From an uncultured Selenomonadaceae bacterium (lineage in GTDB: Bacteria; Bacillota; Negativicutes; Selenomonadales; Selenomonadaceae): 44,629 bases of DNA. The translations under genes and the position numbers were made by a program. This document shows positions 15,954-44,629 of this stretch, piece after piece. The stretch spans positions 1 to 44,629 of the forward strand of contig CAJOIA010000001.1 of NCBI GenBank assembly GCA_905234505.1, read 5' to 3'. Under the pieces are notes generated by a model that saw only the letters and a list, made by a program, of their open reading frames with translations, was not told the origin of the DNA and searched no databases. Every line of letters begins with the position of its first letter. Position 1 is the stretch's first letter.

Positions 15954-18900
15954 TTAAGATTTTTTGTTTTCATCATCGGTACCGGCAATAAAGGTATTAT
16001 CGCCCGCCAATGACGTGAAGTCTTGAGTTTCGATATTGCCTGCAGAGTAATTCGCGCTGTAGTCGGTGAGCTCGTTAAGGTCGGTTGCAGTTTCACCAAC
16101 GCCGCTGTAATTATCGCTGCAGAAGTCATAATCGTAACTGTCGCCCCAGAATGTGTCTTTGCTGCTTGCATAGAACTTAGATTCAAAGTTTGCTGCGGTT
16201 TCTTCATCAAGGACATCAGCTGCACTGCTTTGAGTAATCTTAGCGTTAGTGTAACCTATAAATGTTACTGTATTGCTAGTGCCGCTAATTGTGACAACCG
16301 TATTTCCATTAACAAGAGCTTGGTTAGCAATGGAAGCGCCGTTTTCAAGCACAATCTTGGTTTGTCCATTGAAGCCCCAGACTGAATCTCTGCCGTCCGA
16401 CGCACCAAATACCAGGTAATTGTCAGCGCTATCGGAACCAAGAGAAATAGAATCGTTGCCTGCGCCGCCTGAAACAGTTACACCGGTAACTCCAGATTTA
16501 AGGCTAATATAATCGTTGCTGCTGTCGCCGTAAATTGAAACATCATTTGCATTGTTGATAATTGTATCGACGCCATCGCCGCCATAAATTTCAACATTTG
16601 CAGCCTCATTATCGATTCTGTCGTTGCCTGCGTTGCCATTAATTGTAACGTTTGCAGCTTCATTGGTGATTGTGTCAGCGCCTGTACCGCCAAGAATTTC
16701 AACGTTTTCACCTCTATTGATAATGCTATCGTTGCTATCACCGCCATTGATTGAAACGTATGCAGCTGTATTGGTGATTGTGTCATTGCCTGCCGCGCCG
16801 AAGAGTACGACGTCATTTCTGGTAGTGATTGCGTTGCCGTCATCATCAGTTGTAGTTGTTGACGCCTTGCCTGCTTTGCTATTGGTGATTTGGTCATTAC
16901 CCGCGCCTGCGTCAATTGTTGCTGCATTCAGTGTGCTGTTATCAATCACATCGGCAGTTGCCAATCCGACATAATGACTGGAAACCACAAAGGTACTCCC
17001 TGCCTCTGATGCAGCTTTGCCATTAATCACGATACGATCGGAAATATTATCTTCGATTGAAAGACCTTGGAGTGTGACTGAGGCACTTGTACCAATTCTA
17101 AGGACATAACCCGCCGCATTGAATACGCCGGTATCGGTGACATTAATATTTGCGCCGGTAATTTCAATGTAATCTTTATCTTTGTTGAAGCCTTCAATAT
17201 AGTTGTTGCCGGAGAGTGAATCGAACTCGTAAACGTGCTGTGCTTCGCTAGATACGGTTTCATCATGAGCTGCAACATAATCAGCATCTCCTTCGGTGCC
17301 GCTTGCCGCGATGTGTTCAATACGATATGCATAAACTGAATCATTGCCTGCACCGACAGAAACTCTAACAGCATTTCCAGCCTTTGAAGGATCTACGAGG
17401 TAAATCTTATCAACACCAGCGCCCGCGTTGATTGAAACATCCGCAGCTTCATTGTAAATTGTATCATTACCTGCACCTGCGTCTACTGTGACATGTTGAC
17501 CAGCGTTGACAATAGAATCATTACCTGCGCCGCCAATAATGTAAATGTAGCTGGGTTCATTTTTATCTTTATCTTCAACATCACTTTCAATAGCTGCAAG
17601 TGCATTGTGAATAGTATCGTTGCCGTCGCCGCCATTGATCGTCATAAGAACGTCACCCTTACCAGAACCGGTATTCTTAATAATGTCATTAGCTGCCGCG
17701 CCATTGATTGTAGCATCATTGCCGGTATTGGTAATTGTGTCATTACCTGCTCCGCCGACAATCGAGACGGAATCGCCGCTATTTTCAATAAGATCCGTGC
17801 CATCCTCGCCGGTAATTATAGCATCATTGCCGGTATTGTTAATTGTATCATTTGCTGCGCCGCCATTGATTGTGGAATTTTCGCCGCTGTTAGTGATAAT
17901 GTCATTGCCACCAAGTCCGTAAATCAACGCGCCTTTGGCTGTATTCTCCAGAGCTTTGACAGTTGAATTATCATAGCCATCATCCTCAGATTGTACACTG
18001 TCGCTTTGATTTGTACCAATAACCGCAGTCGGAACTGTAACTTTTGTTTTAGTACCGTCGCTGTTGATAACGTCGAAGGTATTGCCATCCGCCCAGAAGC
18101 TGCCGAGTGTTACATATGTGTTGCCGATTTGAAGTCTGAGGTCTTGGTGTTCGATAATATTTGCTACAGTATTTTCACCTTCGCCGCTTATAACTGTCTC
18201 ATTGCGGGTAATGAAGGAAGTATTATTAAATGCAGCAAGCGTACCAGAAATAATCTTGATTACACTATCTTTAGTGAAGTTTTCGACGTAGTCACTGCCG
18301 TCGCCACTGCCATAAATTAAGATGTTAGTGTTGCCTGATGCCAAAGTAATTGAATCATTACCTGCGCCGCCCCAAATAACAGCATCTTTTGTATTGGTTG
18401 CGTCAATCTTATCATTGCCGCCTGCGCCATAAATCACCACGTCGTCGCTACTATTTGGTTTGATTGTATCTGCATAGGCAGTACCATTGAGCCAAGCATT
18501 ATTGGCAAGGTCTTTATCAATGAATGTATATCTAGGTTGTACAGTGGCACCTGTAGAGTCATCCAAAACATTTGCGGTAGGAACAGTGACAATTGCATTT
18601 TGAATCTTGATTGATTCAGCTTTATCAGCGTCGAATTCTTCGCTATCACCCTGAGTCCAAATCGTGATTTCTGAAGTTTCAGTTGCGAGATCTTTGAGTG
18701 TAAGAGTACCGCCGCCATTTACGCTGATAATGAAATCGAATTTTCCTTCTTCAGCTGCAGGTCTAACTGAAGTATTATAACCGCTGTCATTGAGTTTGAT
18801 AACGCTGTTTGAAGTGTAGCCGTAAATTGTATCGTTGCCGTCAGCGCGGTTGTATTCATAGACGTTAGCACCTGAACTGAGATAGACAGTATCATTACCT

Positions 18901-36900: not shown

Positions 36901-39900
36901 ATAACCGTTTTGCTAGTAGCAGTACCACTACCAGAGTTGTCAATAATATTAAGACCGTTGCCAGCCTGAATAGTTGTCACATGAGCAACGTTAATAATTG
37001 TATCATTATTGTTACCGGTTACAATTGAAACTTTTTCCGGCGAAGGTTCATCACCATAATAAACATATCTCTTAGTTTCAATATAGTTATCGCCAGAACC
37101 CGCGTTAATTGTGGTGTAGCCGGAATAGGCAACGATTGAATCAGCGCCTGTTCCTGCTGTAAGTGAAATGCCGGCATCAGCTACACTCGCCAAAGCTTGA
37201 TCGACATAATCGGTTTTAATTGTGTTGTTACCATCTCCAACATCAACCCTGAGTGATGTGCCGTTTGTAATATAAATAAAATCATCTGGTGTTCCGGCAG
37301 TGATTGAAACATCGCTTCCAGAGGTTGTAATGCTTACCGCGCCTGCAGCAGCACTAACTTCATCAATAACAACGTGATTTGCCGCGTTATAAATCGAATC
37401 AGTTGCACCCTCGCTGCCAGTAACCGTGACATACTCTCCGCCGGTAATACTGATAGCATTAGCGCCGACACCTGCATTTATATCAACATACTTGCCTGTA
37501 TTGGTAATTGTGTCGTTACCAACGCCTGTGTTGATTGTAACAATCTCACCTGAAGCACCGCCAGAGTTTGTAACTTTGTCATCGCCTGCACCGGTATTAA
37601 TATTGGTTTTCTTAGACTCGTTGATAACTGTATCATTGCCGCTGCCTGTTAAGACATTAACACCTTGTTTATCAGAACCACCAACACTGACATAGTTATT
37701 ACCTTCACCTGCATTGATACTTGCATAATCGCCTGTGCTCTTAATGGTATCATTGCCTGTTCCGGTGGTAATTGTAACAGCAGTATCGGAATTTGAACCG
37801 CTGCCGGTATTGATGACGGTATTGGCACCATTGCCCGCGTTAATCTTTGTGGAAGTACCGACGTTACTGATAGAATCATTGCCGTCATAAGTCGTGATAG
37901 TGATATTGGTTCCGCTAGTGACCTTAATTGTATCGTTAGTACCAGCGGCATTTTGTCCACCATCAATTTTGACGTAAGAGCCGCTATTTGTAATATAATC
38001 TGCGCCCGTCCCTGCTTGGATGGTTACGCCGTGCCCTTCAGCGCCGCCTGCGTTGGTAATTCTGTTAGCACCATTGCCAGCTTCAATAATCAAATCATTA
38101 GCGAGTGTACTAGAGACGTTGATAGTGTCGGCGCCTCCAGCGGTTTTGATCGTACTCTGCTCAACGGCTCCGACCACAATATTATTACCTGCTGGGTTAT
38201 TTTGGTTATTGTTGTCATATTCTGAGGCATCTACAATAACCTTGCTACCGCCAGTAAGAGTGATCTTGTCACCGCCGTTGATAGCATGAATTGAAACATC
38301 TGAAGCGCCGCTAATGACCGTGTCATTACCATCGCCCGCCTCAACTGTAATTTGGTCGGTACCTGAATCCAATGAAATATAATCACTACCCGCGCCGGTA
38401 TTGATATTAATTTTGCTGGAAGTGCCTTGAACGTTAACACTGTCATTGCTACCTCCATTGCTCAAATCAATATTAACATCTTGGCTGCCGCTTTGAAGTG
38501 TAACTTGATCTGCGCCTGTGCCGCCATTTATTGAAATATTTTTACCTGCGCTAATGATATTATCGGCACCTGAACTACCAACTGTTGAACCATTAATAGT
38601 GATATATTGCGCAGCGCTATTAATACTAACATACACGCCATTATTACCACCATAGATTGTCTCGTATCTTGCCTTTTCACCCGCTACAATGGAATCTTTA
38701 TAGGTATCGTCACGCTGGACAATATTTTGCTCACCATTGATAGTAATTTTGTCTGCGCCAGCACCGCCATTTATTGTGACATAGTCTGCGGTATTAATAA
38801 TTTTATCACTACTACTGCCACCAGAAATTGAAACTCTTGCTCCGCTGTTATTGATACTGTCAACACCGCCGCCGCCTGTAATTGTCAAATTATTGCCGCT
38901 GTTATCAATAGTGCTACCTGTATTGCCGCCTTTAATTGTGACATTTTCTGCGGTATTGTGAATGGAAGCTCTACCAGATCCGCCATAGATTGAAACGTCT
39001 CTAGCGGTATTATCAATTGTAGAATAACCTTCACCGCCGTGTATTGTGACATTAGATGCAGAGTTAACGACTGTATCAGAGCCCGCACCGCCATAAATTG
39101 AAACCTGTTGTGCTTTGTTGCTAATACTGGAATTGCCTGCGCCGCCATTAATTGTGGAATGCATTCCGTGCGAGTCAATGTCGATTGTAGAGGCAGCGCT
39201 GCCACCATCCACATAAACAGATTCGCCATGTACAGAAACAAAATCAGCGCCCGCGCCTGCGTTAACTGTGTTACTATTGCCGGAAATCGTGATTTTATCA
39301 TCGCCCGCGCCTGCCACAATTGAAACGCTTGTACTGCTGTTAATAATGGTGTCATTGCCTGCTCCGCCGTCAATTGTAATAGCGTCAGCGTTATTGAAAA
39401 TAGAATCAGCACCCGTGCCGCCAACGAATTTGATATTTTGTGCACCGGCTTCAATGCTGATTTTAGATGCGCCAGTAGTATTAACAGTAACATGATTAGC
39501 ATTGGAAGTAATGAGAACTGTATCGCTATCTGTAGCTGCACCCGTGTTAACTACAACATTGCTGCCAGATATAGTAATTTTATCATCGCCAGCGCCTGCG
39601 TTAATCGTGGTTGCAGTGTTTCCCCTGTAAACGATTTCGTCATTGCCCGCGTCAGCGTTTATTGTGCCGCTGCTGTTACCGGTAATTGTAATTTTGTCTG
39701 CTTCATCGCCCGCATTGACCAAAACACTACCTGCATTATTAATAACAATTTCGTCTGCATCTGTGCCTGCGTTAACTGTGTTACTGGTACCGGAAACTGT
39801 GATTTTATCTGCGCCCGCGCCTGCGTCGATTGTGTTACTATTGCCGGAAATCGTGATATTATCTGCGCCAGCGCCTGCGATAACTGTGTTACTACTACCG

Positions 39901-41513
39901 GAAACTGAAATTATATCGTTGTCATCTCCTGCGTCGATTGTGTTATTATTGCCGGAAATCGTGATATTATCGTCACCAGCGTCGCCATTAATAACGATAT
40001 TGCTACCAGCGTTGTTAATGCTATCAGCAGCTCCATCAGCATTAATCGAAACATACTTAGCACTGGAAGAAAGGATGAATTTATCTCCATTGCTGCCACC
40101 ATTGACTGTAATATAGTGGTTACTATCTTTGCCAGATGCTCCAATACTAACGGTATTTGCGCCTGCGCCAGTATTAACGACAACATCCTCAAGATTAGAG
40201 CCGCTAATCGTGATTTTATCATCGCCCCCGTCGGCGTTAATTGTAACGTTATCACTGCTATTGATAATCGAATCAGCGTCGCTTCCGCCATCAATCACTA
40301 CATTGGCGCCACTGTTGTTTATGTAGTTTGTGCCGGTGCCGCCATTGATTGAAACATAAGCGCCACTGTTGGTTATACTGTCGTCTCCTGTGCCGCTTTG
40401 GAGTGTGACCAAAGAACCAGAACTACCGCTAAAATCGTTTTTGATGGTGTCATTGCCATCGCCCAACGATACATTTTTGGCGTCAACCAATATATCAAGA
40501 ATCTTACTCGTTCCTGATAACTCTGTAACATTCACGCCACTAGTAGATCCAGAAATTGAACCTGCGTTTGAAATACTAACTGTATCGTTGCCAGTACCAC
40601 CTACCACTTTTGCTTCAACATCATTACCATTAGAGCTTAAAATCCAAGTAGCAACTGTTGTACTTGCGTCTGAATACAATTGGAGCGTATTGTCATTAAC
40701 ATTAAGACTCGTGATAGTAAATAATGTATTTCCGCTGCTATTTTTAACAACATAGGAATTGCCGGATTTTGAGACAACAGCATCTGCTGCCCCGTTAACA
40801 ATGAGTTTATCGCCAGACCCAACTTTAGAAATATTACTGTTGCTGCCCATTGTAATGGTATTGCCATTAGTGGAGTTGTTGCTGATAGTGCCATTGTTGT
40901 CGATAGTCATTCCAGTTGCGTCGTTTCCGAGCGTTAATGTTTTACCGCTTCCAACAGTAACCGTACTGATTGTATATGTGACACCACTGATAAGATGGCT
41001 GATTTCGGTATTGTCCGAAGCTTTGATTGTCGTATTGCTTGGAATTGAAGTAATTGTTGCATTGTTTATCGAAGTGTTTCCAGAAACTATGGCTTGGATT
41101 CCAGTTACAGCAGCGCCATCCGCTCCGTAATATGTGTTTCCGTTAACTGTGATTGTTTTGACAGAACTAGCCGGGGTTGCAGTAATGGATCCAATGTGAA
41201 CAGCGTTGTTGCTGTAGGATACTGTTCCACTAGTTACAATATTAGTAGTAGACGCTACATTGGAAATAGTGAGCGTCATTGTGCTTGGAACAGTGAGCGT
41301 AGTCACATTAAGACCGCTCAAATTAATACTACTGAAATTCGAGCTTTCATTTTGTATTGTTGTTGGTGAATTACTCGTTGTTGTATAAGTAAGAGTTTTA
41401 GCGTCGGTAAAAGTAATAACAGCACCTGAGGTGACGATATTGGTGAAGTTTGACGAAGTAAGTTCTGTCACATCTGTAAAGCGCTGAATATCGAATTTAA
41501 AAGTGTTTTCCAT
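15954..41513 (-). CDS. Giant RTX-like calcium-binding repeat protein (8519 residues)
   Basis: A single intact reading frame of 25.6 kb for a protein of roughly 0.85 MDa. It is rich in Gly, Asp, Asn, Ser and Thr and almost free of Cys. There is no signal peptide; the N-terminus carries FKFDIQRFTD, a motif that I associate with large Selenomonas-type proteins. Layout: residues 1-300 are Ser/Thr/Asn-rich; about 300-1890 are beta-roll repeats of 18 residues (GGxGxDxIxNxxxxVxIx); about 1890-8430 hold some 31 modules with YDF...GNDVIYGFxxxDTL then ITLKD or NVTLQGY; the last 90 residues are acidic and aromatic. RTX proteins are normally exported by type I secretion through a C-terminal signal and fold on binding external calcium. 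That route and a surface or adhesin role are inferred; no secretion genes are in the window. The ATG has AAGGAG 9 bases upstream. A strong terminator follows the stop. Confidence 0.9.
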   Translation of the reverse strand: MENTFKFDIQRFTDVTELTSSNFTNIVTSGAVITFTDAKTLTYTTTSNSPTTIQNESSNFSSINLSGLNVTTLTVPSTMTLTISNVASTTNIVTSGTVSYSNNAVHIGSITATPASSVKTITVNGNTYYGADGAAVTGIQAIVSGNTSINNATITSIPSNTTIKASDNTEISHLISGVTYTISTVTVGSGKTLTLGNDATGMTIDNNGTISNNSTNGNTITMGSNSNISKVGSGDKLIVNGAADAVVSKSGNSYVVKNSSGNTLFTITSLNVNDNTLQLYSDASTTVATWILSSNGNDVEAKVVGGTGNDTVSISNAGSISGSTSGVNVTELSGTSKILDILVDAKNVSLGDGNDTIKNDFSGSSGSLVTLQSGTGDDSITNSGAYVSINGGTGTNYINNSGANVVIDGGSDADSIINSSDNVTINADGGDDKITISGSNLEDVVVNTGAGANTVSIGASGKDSNHYITVNGGSNGDKFILSSSAKYVSINADGAADSINNAGSNIVINGDAGDDNITISGNNNTIDAGDDNDIISVSGSSNTVIAGAGADNITISGNSNTIDAGAGADKITVSGTSNTVNAGTDADEIVINNAGSVLVNAGDEADKITITGNSSGTINADAGNDEIVYRGNTATTINAGAGDDKITISGSNVVVNTGAATDSDTVLITSNANHVTVNTTGASKISIEAGAQNIKFVGGTGADSIFNNADAITIDGGAGNDTIINSSTSVSIVAGAGDDKITISGNSNTVNAGAGADFVSVHGESVYVDGGSAASTIDIDSHGMHSTINGGAGNSSISNKAQQVSIYGGAGSDTVVNSASNVTIHGGEGYSTIDNTARDVSIYGGSGRASIHNTAENVTIKGGNTGSTIDNSGNNLTITGGGGVDSINNSGARVSISGGSSSDKIINTADYVTINGGAGADKITINGEQNIVQRDDTYKDSIVAGEKARYETIYGGNNGVYVSINSAAQYITINGSTVGSSGADNIISAGKNISINGGTGADQVTLQSGSQDVNIDLSNGGSNDSVNVQGTSSKININTGAGSDYISLDSGTDQITVEAGDGNDTVISGASDVSIHAINGGDKITLTGGSKVIVDASEYDNNNQNNPAGNNIVVGAVEQSTIKTAGGADTINVSSTLANDLIIEAGNGANRITNAGGAEGHGVTIQAGTGADYITNSGSYVKIDGGQNAAGTNDTIKVTSGTNITITTYDGNDSISNVGTSTKINAGNGANTVINTGSGSNSDTAVTITTGTGNDTIKSTGDYASINAGEGNNYVSVGGSDKQGVNVLTGSGNDTVINESKKTNINTGAGDDKVTNSGGASGEIVTINTGVGNDTITNTGKYVDINAGVGANAISITGGEYVTVTGSEGATDSIYNAANHVVIDEVSAAAGAVSITTSGSDVSITAGTPDDFIYITNGTSLRVDVGDGNNTIKTDYVDQALASVADAGISLTAGTGADSIVAYSGYTTINAGSGDNYIETKRYVYYGDEPSPEKVSIVTGNNNDTIINVAHVTTIQAGNGLNIIDNSGSGTATSKTVIQTGANADSINNSGDYVSINADAGNDTVISSGSHVTITSSAGANTFVLNNGGRYSDTPTADVSLVGGSGKDSVTVNASGTNSDTGRINVSLGGDQDDVVINGEYVSVDTGADEDIVAINSSHVTVNTGDANDSIRIENATGTYDVQDVSVNAGEGINTILVNASGKNSDANNFISVSAGSGADVVTLTGSYVSIDAGEGRNTILNEGGFYNTITTGADDDTISLTGNVRGVNVDAGDGKNIIDIAGSGDLSAWISVKSGSGNDLITNNASYVSINAGNGTNTITSTGDNVSIIGGSETDKVTVSGANTYVSLGSGANADAADFVYLDSDTRNATIVANAGNDTISVSSDNTYNNVYDYSNFSATTYGVGNDTIYGFRSGDTIIVPSGGSVTWNGTNNKFETVSSGNGWTTDYEITFGSGNVLLIKDVVPGTTVINWKESGAADTTKYILPYVDYGTSGADEINLTADDHGTASDDYTLSSNSRYSIIADVGDDTINTSDFNNVYINAGDGADIINLDGLSTGITVNAGKGNDTINIAGVSVDAGEVQVGHIFEWSEGDGSDVITNFSANDTLIFAANSSITTAVEVKDVKISVGSTLAYTLKDAAGIAIHYGSGTTLALAYDAAATGSTLPAINEVNGTSRADELTNDQANFTIKGLAGADTITNTGDGSDNTGTANNFVQIEGGDGHDLIINYGKNVSIDGGEGNDSITLKSANDKGAVASGVTVKASAGDDTIYAENDTNITGHIYDFSAPSGKDVIFGINENDTLIVPSGLNIIDSGEVVHVINDDETTSDDFRITLKADVNSTDTILLKDITVGQTNFNVVVGTNSDTTVLPYVQFGTSGDDGNASEAFGFSEDKIAAVDSRYSGKYTLSAGNGNDVILVDSQKDAYIDGGAGNDAITIGNIKNATVVGGTGNDAIYATTAGGNRSNAVVFSVGEADGKDTIYGFAENDSDSLVIKADDSHSDLTIAGVIAFDQYDVIITTTEGNTITLKDAAGKTAKISINGNAQDNSGSSAETFTFDKTYTGRATAETVTNAVAGFNISGANGNDLIVNSGSDTTIDGGEGKDTITNYGAKVSISAGDGNDFIYLYDENSEGDKASGITVTAGAGNDTVSVVGADVDNPVGHIYDFHNGGNGADVIYGFNDNDTIVVTDTNKLGFSSREIIHNDDDGTDDLKITIDGAGNTVTLKDIKIGQTKIHQAQFDNSTYASLESNENDVFVVPFIKYGEKSADTDLVIDRNDVANIVDGYSDGYTLSAQGGSDNITNNGINSVYIDAGEGNDTINLDNVATGVTVNAGQGDDVIIAPTVLPDGTDAVGHKFEYNIGDGNDIIYGFQATDTLVVNVGSTDAAVGFASISGNDVIFTVSADGSAESGRITLKDVAGLQGINLNSGTTLADAYAHNYQVDANKEYIGTAGQDTIKIASGSDEFTVLGDAGNDVIYNYANKTNIFSDMRKIGEDYFDSDTANGAKFSGNDVIYNYGSDVSIVAGAGDDKIYLYDNNVDDAATRAEKVTVEAGLGNDVISVVGADSEDPVGHIYDFASAYEAATSKANVIGNDTIYGYNSNDTLVLPNVDNKAFNLNSSDTTEISVSADGKTFNLIITLPNDSGKITLANVKPGETVIHQASVTPSSDPKAYNEIYNTDDATDGQKNKASIYIVPYVKYGTSSNQRISLTAEDIEDGKLSELYAATDTNIAVRQYSLMAEGGNDTIGTSGVEHAYISGGDGNDKIFVDNVSSNVTISGGAGNDTIYATMEGGVGHVYEYQQGTDGDDVIYGFNATDTLVIGVSDTGTGSNAYYIEKSGKDLIIKFAKTATYEETEKKWTVEDGDKLTGSITIKDAAYITGNQIKIETGTTVAKAYVANASDVEVEKAWVGSTGKDTINNTEDGFKLEGKNDNDLIINSGNEVSISGGDGADTIRNYGAVASIDGGAGDDKIYLYNFNDKGEKASDVTVVGSAGSDTIIVNGSADDGVNRVYDFSAADIEGNVTIYGFTASDILVLNEVSSDDKLTSISDAKNSVVDGITNNDIKLKSGEYTITLKDIEAGFEIKVATLDSDKKLEVITDDDITEAYTTKKIIHGTEKADKITLPAGEAYADYTIKAGAGNDTIRVSANDAVIETGDGNNKVSVTGSEITNVTVNAGTGNDSIFNDASSAVINAGDGNDYVSLSSTASDVTVTPGAGNDTIVYNSPVNEQDAKGHIYDFSTFTGKNVVVGFNSSDTLVLPSDYYFSTDPTFNTISGSNHSDVVFTSDDNTITLKDVAAGVVINYATLDSSDTENPYKPAKDNNSKDIVDTVPSIYTGTTGKDKLDFTGETYESYTINAGTGDDTVTLGANGIVFDAGDGSDKIYVSDEASDVTITAGKGDDTISVYGGAEEPKGHVYNFSTLTGKNVIYGFSSSDTIILDNASIPEDQDALNKLISGGTSGVNNDLVIGSGNNSLTLKSLAPDTKIQFAIISGEGETKGQMVKHGEGTETTTFTAPRIYFGTSKADTLTLNANNEKGIDNTGYTIDAGAANDVITNHASGTAEGTDKISIVAGAGDDKIYNDGSIVTIEGGDGKDLISLSADAQAVTINAGKGADTIRVDTDRTDDDAATGGHVYDYTDPDGADVLYGFKTGDIILIDPTQLDGIADVNSSNDKYKTDIVKNNEGGLDYIFTLGGAAKTLTLKNIEVGTEIKFAKADGSDIGSGDATKIVAEKLVLGTAKAEALVADEAEYKVQGLANADTITSNADKVTIYGGAGKDIIKVSGDVTENVIYADNDEATGAASAAEDTISIGGSADRSGANKIIYTETDKIGKDVIVGIGKNDTIVLGTANIDNLENKISLIANAKNSTVDGLVNNDLQVSLSSNNVITLRDVAPDTEIHFACQDADGNLQAITATGYETMPKVYLGKITADSLTFSGDHDGYNVSLGAGDDKITVQSSNISVTADTGKDIISLGAEANNVTVISGTGNDTIYANTEGGNTYYFGDNEGENVIIGITESDNIEFKGTLTYEMTNDAFKISNGTTTVLLKKYDETGKKLVPVSGDAVFNVNGKLLDDADKAKLRTKLGTANADTITLGEDEANFNIDAKAGNDLIKVEASTSIIDAGAGNDTVSLGADASGNTIKTGTGNDVIKANNSEVGNTYQITENDGNTTITGFNYATDKLQFVGAAGIADKFNGENINLTGNADGTQDVTITITGAAVVLKDITPGQALKISTSTDGTNFTALTENNSIERKLKGTDKADTIVNVGDDETDPLEGASAGDPLIIEAGNGDDKIRNSGEYVSINGGAGADKITLEGAVDNVTVFGGAGNDAIYADEAGHVYQFAVKDNGKDTIYGFNEKDTISLDGAAGAGYNLTVDAKHHSYISLSGGGSVYLLPDSTNTLSAGTTYTIIDTEHASGAIATVANVVRLSENSNKVTNTDDNALIEGSANADTINNSANAASISGGAGKDVINISGDPENVTIIAGAGDDTITATDHTNAILYQYAKGDNKDIIYGIADGDSIALSKLPTDYALSDSTVLSSYMDGDTVKTDLIIKIDASNTITLKEVTADTKFTVYVVEDLTKAQSDLATATAAKEAAEKASDDTAKAAAEADIATAKADIAEAAKELTIPRQIITTETKKSTLVTTEDHEGFNVTGGAGTDSIENSGDDVEIYGGAGADTITNVGVNVSIFGEDGNDVINLSGAAGGVTVSGGEGNDTIYGDEAAHTYYYTYNETAADGDGTDVIYDFNADDVIKIVKITDGTTANVAIASTDLEIESYQENGETKSDLLIKKDTQTLIRIKGISASLTQLNINDKTVDVPTELNASTNVAATLDNANDDYKITGSSQADKITNSGLNVVVNSNEGNDTISNSGDNTKINAGAGNDIINLTGTVEMTTVDGGAGNDTINVGENTAGNVYFYQNYQEARAESGDNKKRDSVASEGNDVIVGFKANDTLVIKGEVVLTGENSNVTITSGGIDTNTGLEDVTFKFKGATNTTSTVILKDVEAGININVRALNPKYDLSEGDANTEAQYIEVLNDEEPIQAEKLIVGTDSNDKATNTAWNGFQVNLGKGTDSYTNNAEAVTINAGDDNDSIINSGADVSIFGGKGNDMISLGADAENAIVNGGAGNDTIYGSGNNATYEYDSTSGNDIIYSFNPDTDKFVLSDVKVISSEMLADSFSVTLGTVDATDETKTTQTGVIKLMLDKYPLAEKTLIGLKNISGADITAPKEKVATEGEQLINKGDDIDDYILTGVTSTTKHDTITNDGNRVTIDAKAGNDVIYNNGARAFIDAGVGNDLVSLTSTAADVTVIGGLGNDTIYNAATSGNTFVYDSNSGNDTIFGFTSNDALVFNGAIANFATASSGIDTATALEDITITADSTRIVIKDIAPGATINAVFSDSSTAEIPVPRYYKGKDTSTADNITWDSDKENYLVELFKGDDTIVNNAKGTTIDAGAGKDNVTNNAENAVIIGGVDNDSVVNDAEAANATIYGGDGNDTIFNSADNAYIDVGAGRNVVSLAGEASGVTVVTGKEEDAIHNNGKGNIFEISEGVDTIFGFTSDDTLQLPADVEVSDTKQTASGLTINFKTNDKSYGTLILAGIETGIELNVIDSSGNAVGADAGIEVPNAIIGTDAAENITNSKDDFTISAAGGADTITNSGANAIILAGNDDDLILNSGSGASIVGGDGKDTISLDSGASNVTLDGGAKDDLLIGSAAGSNVFVYDGKGNDTIQNFQDTDELQIAKNVNYTFDLVDGNLVIKNNNTNALTLDGINYERGVIKINGEEVSIPRVVQLSSGSIGNSYDDQGKSDFTIKGSADSTDDSLHSTGNNVFISLNGGNDEIQVGGNNVTVNAEKGNDNIQISGEFVTVDGGEGSDTIVVDAKAADVYINAGAGDDNITNNAIRTTIITGEGSDTIVNSAANVTIDAGDDADEITNSGNEVSIYGGKGADTISVSGENVTINAGAGDDIVEFGTHTSDEENAYIYEIGRNDGNDTITGFTAFDKLKLDTTTNVVNVTRDDNNNNVSITIGSSRLLLSDVDDDLEEIQVIDKDGNETTVSWPKITNGTASHDALENSKRGYVINALNGNDTITNTAEKSTVNGGAGADIITNSGENVVLNGDNDSDTFINTGEGASIYGGAGDDIITNETAGEKVYISGGAGTEQIINYAADVSIEAGEGNDTITNSAESVVIDAGAGNDLIENEGSNVSITGGAGNDSIKLGAEVSNATVDVGAGTDTIINENENSTNVYQFAGTYNNNVIKGFSATDTIQLLNGATITPITYSSVVQRTVTLEAASEGETPVTEIYNDLVLKIGNSNVTLQGYGEAGYKVKVDGGNDIVVRNWITGTASADNLTNDKDAYEINALAGADTIENSGTNSKIDGGAGADRIVNSGDETEIIGGADNDIITNEGDQVTIDGGAGNDSIINSGTSVSIVAGAGNDTIISEKDVITIDAGAGADRITTPGGKIYAGADNDFISVSADSSGIVINVGAGNDTVDAEKVVSETNAITYEIDTGYGNNVIKGFKASDILHNIGESDITLDANSVVRVTQSGGAADRYDLVVKVGTTNVTLQGYGEASKINIENGDKEAVETDLTSVLVGTAGNDNIIVEASSKYANALAGRDYIKVLAETTDNTPAKITGVTVDGGAGMDTIENSSASALLMGGADRDSIYNNGAGTAEAGFTIDGGAGIDTITNDAANGIIYGGADADTIILGENSGNVTVNVGAGADTVNAETVKAEAGAITYQFDNGYNNNVILGFREKDVIEVLNDTIEVADITPNQVVKDYIQTGTSRTDTVQAYSLALSIGNSNVTLKGYLGIWEDGTAPDANSIPTSIKISKNGKTEEKSFSIPKVMPGTAGNDSIDNGTFTGEESETHAEGKIDGKEGEHYVINALAGNDTIHNAGTLVEIYGGAGNDTIVNVAASVTIDAGAGNDTIDNAGANAIISLGDGTDKVTNTGENAVIYGNSGTNYIENNGGSGVLIYGGSGVDSIIVEKGVNYIEGGAGADKISLGSSAGAVSIIAGAGNDTVYLSSGANVYEYNRADGNDTIYGYTSNSVIKLNDSGYNTSVRPAAEEGKFDFIISVNGGGTLTLKDLATETSEITIWTQGDSEEFDADKAESIKIQNAIVTVPTANVLDDSTGATVQPRYTFIDKDLANNAWLNGTAYADTIKPNSSDDVVIYGAGGNDKIDATNTKDAVIWGGAGNDSITLASGNTNILIYGSGDGSDYVENFTKDSVIKIISGTLAAFNNTSFITRNETVISGEGENTVANIIEHQDLRLQIGNTYVTLGSFWADGNTFDVINSDGTKTKVTVPTAVIGTNQSDSVQSEDDGYDNSTVKALENTAKGALIYGLGGNDIITNSGENSTINGGAANDTINNTGNDAIITGEDGTDLIENSGDSVSIVGGAGNDTITNTGNDATINGAAANDIIKNTGSGKGDVLMTINGGDGNDTIHNALAAIESDVEDKDKNEPSYIYIIGGAGNDSIVNAGQHVTVDAGAGNDTIYNEAADVSINAGAGVDKIYLVDPSKAGNAVRVSVGAGNDSVYAYRIEHIAASGTEGDADYVAAHDETVSSEAQHVYEFDSLSGNNYIEGFNKDKDYIEITGANINVTDTGVFNAAGYVLRIGTSASVTLQGLSIEDNISDRIVINGKAASEAGSTFVVSSHYVGLATADVIDNSTLNAATIDAGAGNDQITNSKAGKASTTTTDDDGNAITTRNDVVLFGAAGNDTITNTAAYVSINGGDSNDSIINRGENVEILGGTGADTITNEAANVTINGNAGNDRIDNEAANVEIYGGDGVDTIINNANDVSIYGDSSNDYISLKSGVTGVTVSGGAGNDSISLGSDSADNYLVFGASDGRDSVWGFNGQTKIVLENGASIANQALVNGNTVVTISGTSNTVTFIGYTNAKITQSSAADVLDEETAANFESKFYASSKDTFWGDSYDYDFCSDNYSGVGETATDLNELTDYSANYSAGNIETQDFTSLAGDNTFIAGTDDENKKS
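20665..20737 (-). repeat. Copy A of a near-identical 73-bp block in the giant gene
   Basis: It matches 39307-39379 at 71 of 73 positions, although the two lie 18.6 kb apart in different architectural zones. It encodes a TIDGGAGNDSIINSGTSVSI-type pair of turns. Confidence 0.8.
26112..26262 (-). other. Alanine-rich helical insert in one giant-protein module
   Basis: About 50 residues (between EDLTKAQ and KELTIP) with a pattern such as ATAAKEAAEKASDDTAKAAA, strongly predicted as helix or coiled coil by eye. It is the only such stretch that I see in the otherwise all-beta repeat protein, and it sits in the hinge position of a module. Confidence 0.75.
35900..40610 (-). repeat. Beta-roll zone of 18-residue (54-bp) repeats within the giant gene
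   Basis: About 1600 residues of nearly uninterrupted repeats. Consecutive units such as GGEGYSTIDNTARDVSIY and GGSGRASIHNTAENVTIK are exactly 18 residues. The first nine follow the RTX nonapeptide GGxGxDxIx; the second nine are NxxxxVxIx instead. Boundaries are approximate. Confidence 0.8.
39307..39379 (-). repeat. Copy B of a near-identical 73-bp block in the giant gene
   Basis: Partner of 20665-20737 with two substitutions, far above the usual similarity between repeat units, so recent exchange or duplication is likely. Confidence 0.8.
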
Positions 41514-41734
41514 GATACTATTCTCCTTCCATGAATGAAAAATCCATATCTATAATTCCCTGAAAATCTATTGACAGTATAAAAATTTCCAAAAACCTAG
41601 AAAGTTCACGAATTGAAAAACCGAGCCAAGTTATGTTGCGTGATCACACCCTTTTAAAAATTAAATTAAACCTAAAAAAATACCCCCCCCCTTGCAGATT
41701 TACGAAGACAAGATAAGTTCGGCTTTATAACTCA
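41514..41734. other. Intergenic region between trpG and the giant gene
   Basis: 221 bases, AT-rich. It holds the giant gene's ribosome binding site (GGAAGGAG on the minus strand), a palindromic TGATCA near 41641 and a nine-base G/C tract. I see no convincing intrinsic terminator for trpG and no strong promoter for the giant gene; a weak CTGTCA-17-TATAGA pair on the minus strand is the best candidate. Confidence 0.5.
41683..41691 (-). repeat. Nine-base G tract upstream of the giant gene
   Basis: On the minus strand GGGGGGGGG followed by TATTTTTTT, about 170 bases ahead of the giant gene's ATG. Homopolymers of this length are prone to slippage. Confidence 0.85.
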
Positions 41735-42310
41735 TTAGAAATGGTTAACGTGATTAAGGAAGTTATTCAGCATGATTTTACCGGTTGGCGTAAGAATTGA
41801 TTCCGGATGGAACTGAATACCTTCGATGTCGAAATTTTTATGATGAATGCCCATGATAGTACCGTCCGCAAGTTCGCTGGTAATTTCAAGGCAGTCCGGC
41901 AAAGTTTCACGTTCGACAATTAGCGAATGATAACGCCCGACTTCGGCGTTCTGCGCGACGTTTTGATAAATACCTTTGCCGCAGTGAATTAGCTTTGAAG
42001 TTTTACCATGAACAATTTGCTCTGCGCGAATGATCTTGCCGCCAAAAACTTCACCAATGGCTTGATGACCTAAACAAACGCCCAAAATCGGCAGCTCGCC
42101 CTTGAGCTCCGAAATAAGATTTTCAGTAATACCTGCGTCTTTAGGAACACCCGGACCAGGCGAAATAATAACGGCTTGATAATTCCGGCTTTGAATATCT
42201 TGGACTGAAATTTTATCGTTGCGAATAACTTCGACACTTGCGCCGAGCTCTGCTAAGAGTTGATAAATATTATAAGTAAAAGAATCGTAGTTATCAAGCA
42301 GAAGTAACAT
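41735..42310 (-). CDS. trpG: Anthranilate synthase component II, glutamine amidotransferase
   Basis: A 191-residue class I glutamine amidotransferase that supplies ammonia to TrpE for anthranilate formation in tryptophan synthesis. Visible motifs: LLLDNYDSFTYN at the N-terminus, the oxyanion-region SPGPG (50-54), nucleophile Cys79 in GVCLGHQ, and the His168-x-Glu170 pair in QFHPES. Full length. Its ATG shares one base with the trpE stop (TAATG), so translation is coupled. An AGGAGG lies 10 bases upstream within the trpE end. The same protein type can also serve PabB in folate synthesis; the partner here is a TrpE-type enzyme. No further trp genes follow; the giant gene is next. Confidence 0.93.
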   Translation of the reverse strand: MLLLLDNYDSFTYNIYQLLAELGASVEVIRNDKISVQDIQSRNYQAVIISPGPGVPKDAGITENLISELKGELPILGVCLGHQAIGEVFGGKIIRAEQIVHGKTSKLIHCGKGIYQNVAQNAEVGRYHSLIVERETLPDCLEITSELADGTIMGIHHKNFDIEGIQFHPESILTPTGKIMLNNFLNHVNHF

Positions 42311-43803
42311 TAATTTTCAACCTCCTCGACAACTTCAAAGAGTGCTTTAGCTTTCTGCAACATTTCACGATATTCATTGACAGGAACAGAATCGGCAACG
42401 ATACCCGCGCCAGCTTGAATAATTGCGGTGTCATTTTCAATTTTCATAGTGCGAAGAGTAATGCACATATCCATATTACCGCAAAAATCCATATAACCAA
42501 CAGTACCGGCGTAAAAGCCGCGCGGCTGATTTTCCAATTCGTGAATAATTTCCATAGCACGAAGTTTAGGCGCGCCGCTAACTGTACCGGCGGGAAACGT
42601 CGCCTTCAGTACGTCCATAGGCTTGTAATCATTTTTCAAAGAGCCAGTGACGCTGGAAACCATGTGCATAACGTGGCTGAAATATTCCACTGCGCGAAGT
42701 TTATTAACTTTGACAGTGCCAGCTTTGGAGATTCTGCCCAAATCATTTCGTGCAAGGTCGACTAACATTGAATGCTCAGCGCATTCTTTTTCGTCGGCTT
42801 GCAATTCTGCTGCCAAGGCGGCGTCTTCTTCTGGAGTTTCACCGCGTCTGCGAGTGCCGGCGATCGGATACGTATAAACTGTATCATTTTGAACTTTCAC
42901 CAACATTTCCGGCGACGCCCCGATCAGTTTTATACTCCCGAAATTCAAGTAGAACATGTAAGGCGAAGGATTTACTTGTCTAAGCTTCCTATAAAATAAG
43001 AAAGCCGGTTTAGAAACTCTCGACTTGAACTGATAACTCGGCACAACTTGAAAAATTTCTCCGGCAAAAATATAATCCTTCGCTTTATTAATAGCATAAA
43101 TAATACTAGGCGGCACTTCGCCATATGTCCCTATAAGATTTATCGGATTTTGGCTTTGATTCTTAACAAGATTTTTGAAAACTTTTAGCGGCGCTGAAAT
43201 AATTTCGGCAATTTTTTTCATGCGCGCGGAAATTTCTTCATACAGTGCGTCAAGATTATCATTTGGCTTAACGTCGGCAAGATAAATCAGTCGCGCAGAA
43301 TTTTTAAGCGAATCAAAAACAACCATCACGCGGCAAATCATAAATTGACCAAGAAGTTCTTCATCGCAAATTTCAAGCCCGCGTATTCTGTCAAAAGTTG
43401 CGGCAACTTCGAAATTGAAATAGCCAACCATGCCGCCATTTTGAAGTGGCAAAAGGTTAGTGGTTAGTGGCAAAGTTTTATACAACGACATAAATTTATT
43501 AATCGTGTCGACCGGTGCGCCGTCAATGCTTTTCATCAAATCGCCGTCTTTGTAAATCAGCTTGTTTTTGAAAACCTGCAAATGAATGAAAGGCTCTGCG
43601 CCGATAAATGAATATCGCCCAAATGCCTGTTGCGTGGTGTCGACCGATTCAAGGATAAAACCTTTGCCTTCGTCAACCAGCTTGTAATAGATTGAAACCG
43701 GAGTATCCAAATCGACGCTGATATTGGCAGAAACCGCAATCAAATTGGCGTCCTGCGCGAAAGATTTAAACTCGTCGATAGTCGGAGAAATTTTCAAGTT
43801 CAT
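42310..43803 (-). CDS. trpE: Anthranilate synthase component I
   Basis: A chorismate-utilising enzyme of 497 residues (usual TrpE length) that makes anthranilate with TrpG. The N-terminal part has FILESVD and GRYSFIGAEP, corresponding to the region that forms the tryptophan feedback site in TrpE. The catalytic part has IGASPEMLVKV, YPIAGTRRRGETPEED, AEHSMLVDLARNDLGR and FPAGTVSGAPKLRAMEII. AEH with LVDLARND favours TrpE over PabB. The ORF track extends it to 752 residues, but that extra 255-residue N-terminus is just the translated 81-bp repeats. The start is ATG 43803, or TTG 43797, which has better spacing (8 bases) from AGAGG. I see no trp leader peptide or attenuator in the 50 bases upstream. 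Confidence 0.93.
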   Translation of the reverse strand: MNLKISPTIDEFKSFAQDANLIAVSANISVDLDTPVSIYYKLVDEGKGFILESVDTTQQAFGRYSFIGAEPFIHLQVFKNKLIYKDGDLMKSIDGAPVDTINKFMSLYKTLPLTTNLLPLQNGGMVGYFNFEVAATFDRIRGLEICDEELLGQFMICRVMVVFDSLKNSARLIYLADVKPNDNLDALYEEISARMKKIAEIISAPLKVFKNLVKNQSQNPINLIGTYGEVPPSIIYAINKAKDYIFAGEIFQVVPSYQFKSRVSKPAFLFYRKLRQVNPSPYMFYLNFGSIKLIGASPEMLVKVQNDTVYTYPIAGTRRRGETPEEDAALAAELQADEKECAEHSMLVDLARNDLGRISKAGTVKVNKLRAVEYFSHVMHMVSSVTGSLKNDYKPMDVLKATFPAGTVSGAPKLRAMEIIHELENQPRGFYAGTVGYMDFCGNMDMCITLRTMKIENDTAIIQAGAGIVADSVPVNEYREMLQKAKALFEVVEEVEN

Positions 43804-43857
43804 CACCTCTGCAGATATTTTATAACGACCTGTCAAATAAAATAATGACGGCATTTT

Positions 43858-44629
43858 GACGCCATTTTTGCCAATTATGTTGTTTTTTCCCGAGGAAAAG
43901 TCCAAAATCGGCGTTTTCAAAAATGAGAATCGCGTACTGACGCCATTTGTACCAATTTGATTGTTTTTTCCCGAGGAAAAGTCTAAAATCAGCAGTTTCA
44001 AAAATGAGAATCGCATACTGACGCCATTTTTGCCAATTATGTTGTTTTTTCCCGAGGAAAAGTCTAAAATCAGCATTTTAAAAAATGAGAATCGCGTACT
44101 TACGCCATTTCTGCCATTTATGTTGTTTTTTCCCAGTGAAAAGTCCAAAATCAGCAGTTTCAAAAATGAGAATCGCATACTGACGCCATTTGTGCCATTT
44201 ATGTTATTTTTTACCGAGGAAAAGTCCAAAATCGGCGTTTTAAAAAATGAGAATCGCGTACTGACGCCATTTATCGCATTTTGATTGTTTTTTCCCAGTG
44301 ACAAGTCCAAAATCGGCGTTTTAAAAAATGAGAATCGCGTATTGACGCCATTTGTCGCATTTTGATTGTTTTTTCCCAGTGACAAGTCCAAAATCAGCAG
44401 TTTCAAAAATGAGAATCGCATACTGACGCCATTTTTGCCGATTATGTTGTTTTTTACCGAGGAAAAGTCCAAAATCGGCGTTTTAAAAAATAAGAATCGC
44501 GTACTGACGCCATTTCTGCTGATTATGTTATTTTTTCCCGAGGAAAAGTCAAAAATCAGCAGTTTCAAAAATGAGAATCGCGTACTGACGCCATTTGTGG
44601 CAATTATGTTGTTTTTTCCCGAGGAAAAG
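43858..44629. repeat. Tandem 81-bp repeats upstream of trpE (at least 9 copies plus a partial)
   Basis: Units begin with GACGCCATT (or close) at 43858, 43939, 44020, 44101, 44182, 44263, 44344, 44425, 44506 and 44587, exactly 81 bases apart, and the array runs off the window edge. The conserved core includes TTTTTTCCCGAGGAAAAGTC and AAAATGAGAATCGC. Two flavours alternate irregularly: ATCGGCGTTTT with CGCGTACTG, and ATCAGCAGTTTC with CGCATACTG. As 81 is a multiple of three, one minus-strand frame stays open throughout (27-residue unit like LDFSSGKNNIIGKNG), as does part of a plus-strand frame. There are no unique spacers, so it is not a CRISPR array. Confidence 0.92.

What the first reader, a model, noticed from the sequence alone, without database searches (positions are those of the whole stretch)
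43858..44629. 81-bp minisatellite of nine or more copies upstream of trpE, open in frame
Perfectly periodic repeats with two interleaved flavours lie within 60 bases of trpE and continue past the window. The period is a multiple of three and one minus-strand frame has no stop across the array, joining trpE in frame. Differences between copies often change the amino acid (K, T, R and I exchange in one position), which argues against selection on protein. It could be a VNTR, a regulatory protein-binding array or the tail of an upstream gene.
Basis: partly seen in the sequence, partly recalled or inferred. Interest (0 to 1): 0.5.

Follow-up and report, generated by a model that had tools for sequence, protein, structure and literature searches.

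The report
Dispersed 81-bp intergenic repeat arrays
The repeat next to trpE is one of several non-coding tandem arrays scattered between genes in a rumen-type Selenomonadaceae bacterium and two close relatives, where copies at different places stay alike within each species; it resembles the interspersed repeats used to fingerprint tuberculosis strains and is not part of a protein.

Summary
The array is real: 9.5 copies of 81 bp at 43857-44629, running to the contig end. It is not a one-off. The same family forms arrays on four other contigs of this genome (C2, C12, C20, C24). C24 ends in exactly the same 99 bases that open this array, so C24 and the window are probably one ~15-unit array between a clostripain-family gene and trpE. 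Among 66 genomes of the genus only two close relatives carry it. Several arrays sit at orthologous sites (trpE, hisG, coaBC, a type III methylase gene), yet units resemble other arrays of their own genome far more than the array at the same site in another species (0.82 against 0.68): concerted evolution. The open frame is not coding. It closes in the C24 part and in the relative's trpE array, sister arrays hold stops and frame-breaking units, and pN/pS in that frame is unremarkable. Half the columns never change, including a GCGT-N4-ACGC inverted repeat and A/T tracts, so the DNA itself looks constrained. Best reading: a lineage-specific, MIRU-like dispersed intergenic VNTR family. Any effect on trpE is unproven.

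The parts
43857..44629 (-). 81-bp tandem array, 9.5 units, cut by the contig end; unit sense (GGCGTCA...) on the trpE strand
   Evidence: TRF score 1100; 9 core matches, 0 expected
43868..43948 (-). array unit nearest trpE (model match 1-81)
   Evidence: covariance model R1, 89.7 bits
43932..43943 (-). core of that unit, GCGTCAGTACGC (GCGT-N4-ACGC); repeated at 44013, 44175, 44256, 44337, 44418, 44499, 44580 and, with one change, at 44094
   Evidence: own-genome pattern scan: 38 of 39 exact matches lie in arrays; GCG, A, A and GC of the core invariant in the 64 aligned units
44531..44629 (.). 99 bases identical to the end of contig C24, probably joining the two contigs into one array of about 15 units
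   Evidence: exact suffix/prefix overlap of 99; 15 cores in the joined sequence
43848..43867 (-). trpE-side edge of the array: a partial unit running into AAATGCCG, which looks like a remnant of element E that is present here in G079
   Evidence: comparison of G000 and G079 trpE upstream regions; inference
43817..43824 (-). TATAAAAT, -10-like box between array and gene; the 43 bases ending in the ATG differ at only 2 places from G079
   Evidence: promoter assignment is inference
42310..43803 (-). trpE, anthranilate synthase component I, ATG start with GAGGTG ribosome site at 43804-43809
   Evidence: NCBIfam TIGR00564 E=1.8e-151 (505 bits, just under its cut-off of 517.7)
41735..42310 (-). trpG/pabA-type glutamine amidotransferase, follows trpE
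   Evidence: TIGR00566 above cut-off

Best explanation
The array is one locus of a lineage-specific family of non-coding, intergenic tandem repeats of about 81 bp, comparable in organisation to mycobacterial MIRU-VNTRs. Shown: it occurs as arrays at dispersed sites between genes in three closely related Selenomonadaceae genomes, partly at orthologous sites, and units are homogenised across sites within each genome. Inferred: copy number changes by replication slippage or unequal recombination, and homogenisation occurs by recombination or gene conversion between arrays. Also inferred: the GCGT-N4-ACGC repeat and the A/T tracts are kept because something, most likely a DNA-binding protein or the amplification machinery, needs them. 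The array lies upstream of the -10-like box and ribosome site of trpE, so any effect on trpE would be modest and through spacing or protein binding, not through translation.
For: Arrays on C1, C2, C12, C20 and C24 of the same genome. Only G005 and G079 besides G000 match among 66 genus genomes. Orthologous sites: hisG in 3 species, coaBC in 3, trpE in 2, C11 peptidase in 2, mod in 2. Concerted evolution: cross-species identity 0.675 at the same site against 0.663 at different sites, within-species different sites 0.817; 19 of 39 G000 units have their nearest relative in another array. Constraint: 41 of 81 columns unchanged against 8.6 expected under Poisson, dispersion index 4.3. Not coding: stops and 71/80/57-bp units in sister arrays, pN/pS 0.73-0.89 in the trpE frame against 0.47-2.26 in other frames, no Pfam match. 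Distant relative G003 has the HD gene and hisG almost touching, an empty-site state. Published analogue: 40-100-bp MIRUs at 41 sites, and a repeat-filled rnc-fpg1 gap that is only a few bp in most mycobacteria outside the tuberculosis complex (PMC2734929).
Against: Copy-number variation between isolates was not shown; only one MAG per species was available. Linkage between variable positions decays within about 6 bp, shorter than usual for gene conversion tracts, so recurrent mutation may contribute. Column constraint could in part be mutational bias (C columns change most). Many arrays lie at contig ends, so assembly artefacts at the edges cannot be excluded.
Confidence: 0.8

Rival explanations
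1. Protein-binding array: each unit is an operator or architectural site (GCGT-N4-ACGC plus A/T tracts); the array concentrates a DNA-binding protein and influences neighbouring operons or chromosome organisation.
For: Block-wise constraint and conservation of the core across three species; arrays sit upstream of biosynthetic operons (hisG, trpE) and run in the direction of the flanking gene at 6 of 8 distinct sites.
Against: The core is almost absent outside arrays (1 of 39 matches), so there is no ordinary regulon; neighbours share no function (coaBC, ychF, mod, a chemoreceptor gene); orientation is reversed at ychF and mod; 63 of 66 genus genomes lack it.
Confidence: 0.2
2. Transcription terminator or insulator arrays: units are degenerate intrinsic terminators that separate operons.
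For: The first unit of the C2 and G005 C45 arrays is replaced in register by a good stem followed by a T-run (AAGGTTGCG-TAATGG-CGCGACCTT-ATTTTTTT); arrays often start right after stop codons.
Against: In ordinary units the stem is only 4 bp with a gap of several bases before the T-run; terminator-like sites in the window region do not clearly exceed shuffles (5 against 3.6); consensus folding gives only -2.8 kcal/mol.
Confidence: 0.12
3. Mobile element: arrays are copied to new sites by an enzyme acting on the TTTTCC..GGAAAA ends that bound every array.
For: Boundaries are at the same point of the unit, often directly after stop codons; a second dispersed element E occurs in the same three genomes and abuts five of the arrays.
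Against: No convincing single copies away from arrays, no hits in plasmids, phages or viral contigs, no target-site duplication seen, and several sites are shared between species instead of scattered.
Confidence: 0.1
4. Coding repeat: the array encodes a repetitive N-terminal extension of TrpE or the tail of another protein.
For: The frame is open over the window part and joins trpE.
Against: An in-frame stop lies 283 codons upstream in the joined array; the G079 trpE frame closes 80 codons upstream, inside its array; about two thirds of shuffled 81-mers repeated in register have at least one open frame; most complete trpE genes of the genus have open frames of about 490-550 aa; no selection signal; no family match.
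Confidence: 0.03

Closest known systems
MIRU / MIRU-VNTR of Mycobacterium tuberculosis (PMC2734929)
   Same: Unit length within 40-100 bp, tandem arrays at dispersed intergenic sites, restricted to a clade, empty site in relatives.
   Different: No sequence relation was sought or is claimed; here about 5-6 sites per genome, not 41; no solitary copies; units of one genome differ by 15-20%; copy-number polymorphism not shown here.
Wolbachia intergenic VNTR-141 and VNTR-105 (PMC3287509)
   Same: Long-period intergenic tandem repeats with small palindromes and internal deletions.
   Different: Those are separate loci with 98-99% identical units; here one family is shared among loci with variable units.
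CRISPR arrays
   Same: Regularly spaced conserved blocks alternating with variable ones.
   Different: Variable blocks are 2-12 bp, reuse a few words, and lie inside a unit that is homologous throughout; no unique spacers.
REP/BIME-type palindromic repeats
   Same: Dispersed intergenic elements; element E next to the arrays is of this sort.
   Different: The 81-bp unit is only weakly palindromic and occurs only in head-to-tail arrays.

Membership tests
Dispersed intergenic VNTR family (MIRU-like organisation) | tandem arrays of one unit family at several separate chromosomal sites | tested here: met
   5 contigs in G000, 6 arrays in G005, 4 in G079
Dispersed intergenic VNTR family (MIRU-like organisation) | intergenic, not coding | tested here: met
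   array edges abut stop codons and 5' regions; frame tests
Dispersed intergenic VNTR family (MIRU-like organisation) | copy number varies between isolates | not testable with these tools
   one MAG per species; copy number differs between species (coaBC 14, 4 and 5 cores) but could not be tested within one
Mycobacterial MIRU (as a sequence family) | sequence homology to MIRU units | not tested
   no claim of membership is made; only the organisation is compared
Repeat-containing protein gene | one frame open in all copies and under amino-acid selection | tested here: not met
   stops in the same frame in 6 of 37 G000 units, frame-shifting unit lengths in G005, pN/pS 0.73-0.89
CRISPR array | near-identical short repeats separated by unique spacers | tested here: not met
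   unit alignment shows homology along all 81 columns
Known structured RNA (Rfam 15) | match at gathering score | tested here: not met
   no match in 12 loci at gathering, none in the window region at E<=1
Plasmid, phage or viral repeat | similar DNA in those collections | tested here: not met
   no matches

The most novel reading that the evidence does not exclude
The arrays are a maintained chromosomal system: a dedicated protein recognises a fixed scaffold (GCGT-N4-ACGC and A/T tracts), while short slots between the blocks vary almost independently from a small vocabulary and are shuffled among arrays genome-wide, serving chromosome organisation or tuning of neighbouring operons.
Probability: 0.13. 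Interest if true: 0.65.

Novelty: new member of a known kind. Interest (0 to 1): 0.4.

Why it matters
It documents a MIRU-like repeat family in uncultured Selenomonadaceae with clear concerted evolution between sites that appear to predate the species split. It offers candidate strain-typing loci, explains contig breaks in these MAGs, and warns that the 772-aa open 'TrpE' frame should be annotated from the ATG at 43803.

Tried and rejected
Coding reading: rejected on frame, stop and pN/pS tests. Compensating hairpins: the TTTTCC..GGAAAA palindrome pairs worse within units than between shuffled units (0.999 of shuffles at least as good), and only one slot pair of ten tests reached p=0.009, not significant after correction; the 4-bp core helix barely varies. 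Rfam search empty. Genome-wide operator use of the core: not supported. Mobile DNA in plasmids, phages, viral contigs: none. Strict two-flavour alternation: not supported over whole units. Array-mediated rearrangement between G000 and G079 (different genes upstream of trpE): suggestive only; the S15 peptidase gene upstream in G079 has no match in G000 and G005. Literature searches for the same repeat in Selenomonas found nothing on it.

Full report
What is there. TRF reports an 81-bp array of 9.5 copies at 43857-44629 with score 1100. A 27-base core recurs nine times with at most one mismatch, where shuffles give none. The array lies at the end of the contig and stops 53 bp before the trpE ATG. 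TrpE and the following TrpG/PabA are clear homologues of their families. The window is contig C1 of a 1.79-Mb, 97-contig genome.

It is a family, not a single locus. The array DNA also matches contigs C2, C12, C20 and C24 of the same genome. A covariance model of the unit gives 46 matches there, all in arrays or at array edges except one weak hit on C5 (E=0.025) whose sequence lacks the core. Unit lengths are mostly 81, with a 72-bp unit in C2 and 71-, 80- and 57-bp units in relative G005. Among 66 genomes of the genus only G000, G005 and G079 match. A scan of named genomes returns CAJOMO01 (Reindeer_2_mag_171) and CAJOIB01 (Red_deer_4_mag_35), whose contig numbers and lengths match G005 and G079; both are called uncultured Selenomonadaceae. 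The one other hit, in a Verrucomicrobia MAG, is a single match of a degenerate pattern and was taken as chance, without further study.

The window array probably continues on another contig. The last 99 bases of C24, turned to the unit sense, equal the first 99 of the turned window exactly. That is what a de Bruijn assembly leaves at a broken repeat. Joined, the array has about 15 units between a clostripain-family (Peptidase_C11) gene and trpE. The join is an inference. In G005 the same peptidase gene also runs into an array at a contig end. In G079 it has no array, and the trpE array is preceded by an S15 peptidase gene that has no match in the other two.

Sites are shared between species. 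Arrays lie between an upstream 170-aa gene (called the HD gene here, a label that was not checked against families) and hisG in G000 and G079, and after the same gene at a contig end in G005. They lie after coaBC in all three, before trpE in two, after the C11 peptidase gene in two, and beside a type III methylase (mod) gene in two. Others lie by leuA and ychF (G005) and between a chemoreceptor gene and a membrane-protein gene (G000). The names hisG, coaBC, leuA, ychF and mod were read from the translated sequence and not confirmed by family searches. Every array begins and ends at the same part of the unit, often directly after a stop codon. In distant relative G003 the 170-aa gene's homologue and hisG are almost contiguous, which looks like the empty state.

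Concerted evolution. Between species, units at the same site are 67.5% identical and units at different sites 66.3%. Within a species, units at different sites are 81.7% and at the same site 84.3% identical. Of 39 G000 units, 19 have their closest relative in a different array. Flanking genes are 80-92% identical in DNA between these species. So the sites look old, but the sequences are homogenised within each genome.

Constraint without coding. On a tree of the G000 units, 41 of 81 columns show no change where a Poisson model expects 8.6, with dispersion 4.3. Unchanged or nearly unchanged columns include the GCGT and the outer GC of GCGT-N4-ACGC, and the A/T tracts; these hold in the three species. 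Correlation between variable sites falls from r2 0.47 at 1-2 bp to about 0.05 beyond 12 bp, so short slots vary almost independently. Why linkage is so short is not explained: recombination, recurrent mutation under constraint, or both. Mutational bias may explain part, since C columns change most, but most G and C inside the core do not change.

The open frame. In the window the trpE frame is open through the array. In the joined array a stop appears 283 codons upstream, and in G079 the frame closes 80 codons upstream, inside its array. Six of 37 G000 units have a stop in this frame. Because the period is a multiple of three, a frame free of stops in one unit tends to stay free across the array, and about two thirds of shuffled 81-mers have at least one open frame. 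pN/pS in the frame is 0.73-0.89 and other frames range from 0.47 to 2.26. There is no Pfam match.

Mechanism. Best supported is an interspersed intergenic tandem-repeat family. The comparison with MIRUs rests on PMC2734929, which describes 40-100-bp units at 41 sites and a repeat-filled gap between rnc and fpg1 that is only a few bases in most mycobacteria outside the tuberculosis complex, with longer repeats correlating with higher fpg1 mRNA. Slippage, unequal recombination and inter-array conversion are inferred, not seen. A TATAAAAT box and ribosome site conserved with G079 lie between array and trpE, so trpE probably keeps its own promoter; this too is inference.

Limits. All three genomes are MAGs with contigs ending in arrays. 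Within-species copy-number variation could not be tested. A name for G000 itself was not available. About ten pairing tests were run, and the single nominal p=0.009 is not counted as evidence. The unit alignment used for the identity and constraint figures left out the C88 and C99 arrays of G079, which were fetched later.

Noticed in passing
G000 C3:17608, C4:3879, C5:8843, C20:32909 and others; L123-L142: A second dispersed element (E, very roughly 110-170 bp, several nested hairpins ending GGCGTTTCTTT..AAATGCCGA): 17 pattern matches in G000, 28 in G005, 11 in G079, none in four other genus genomes tested. Its terminal hairpin varies in a mostly complementary way.
   Followed up: partly
L020, L023, L075, L077, L078 at array right ends: Element E sits directly at the right end of five arrays in the same orientation and at nearly the same point of the unit; G000 trpE keeps only a possible AAATGCCG remnant.
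   Followed up: partly
L017 after 6035; L018 and L020 left array edges; L145: Heptamer-type repeats (CACTAGTCACTAACCACTA, TTAGTGACTAG) run into several array edges, reminiscent of short tandemly repeated sequences of other bacteria.
   Followed up: no
L022 left array edge; L019 array edge: The first unit of two arrays at different sites in different species is an intrinsic-terminator-like stem plus T-run in register with the repeat.
   Followed up: partly
window 15954-41513 (-): A single 8519-aa open frame rich in GNDxI-like repeats, with 54/108-bp DNA repeats at 16579-16792 and 39765-39971.
   Followed up: no
window 41683-41691: A run of nine C between the giant gene and trpG, a possible slippage-prone tract.
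   Followed up: no
G005: No trpE match in a genome rated 99% complete, although its close relatives G000 and G079 have it.
   Followed up: no
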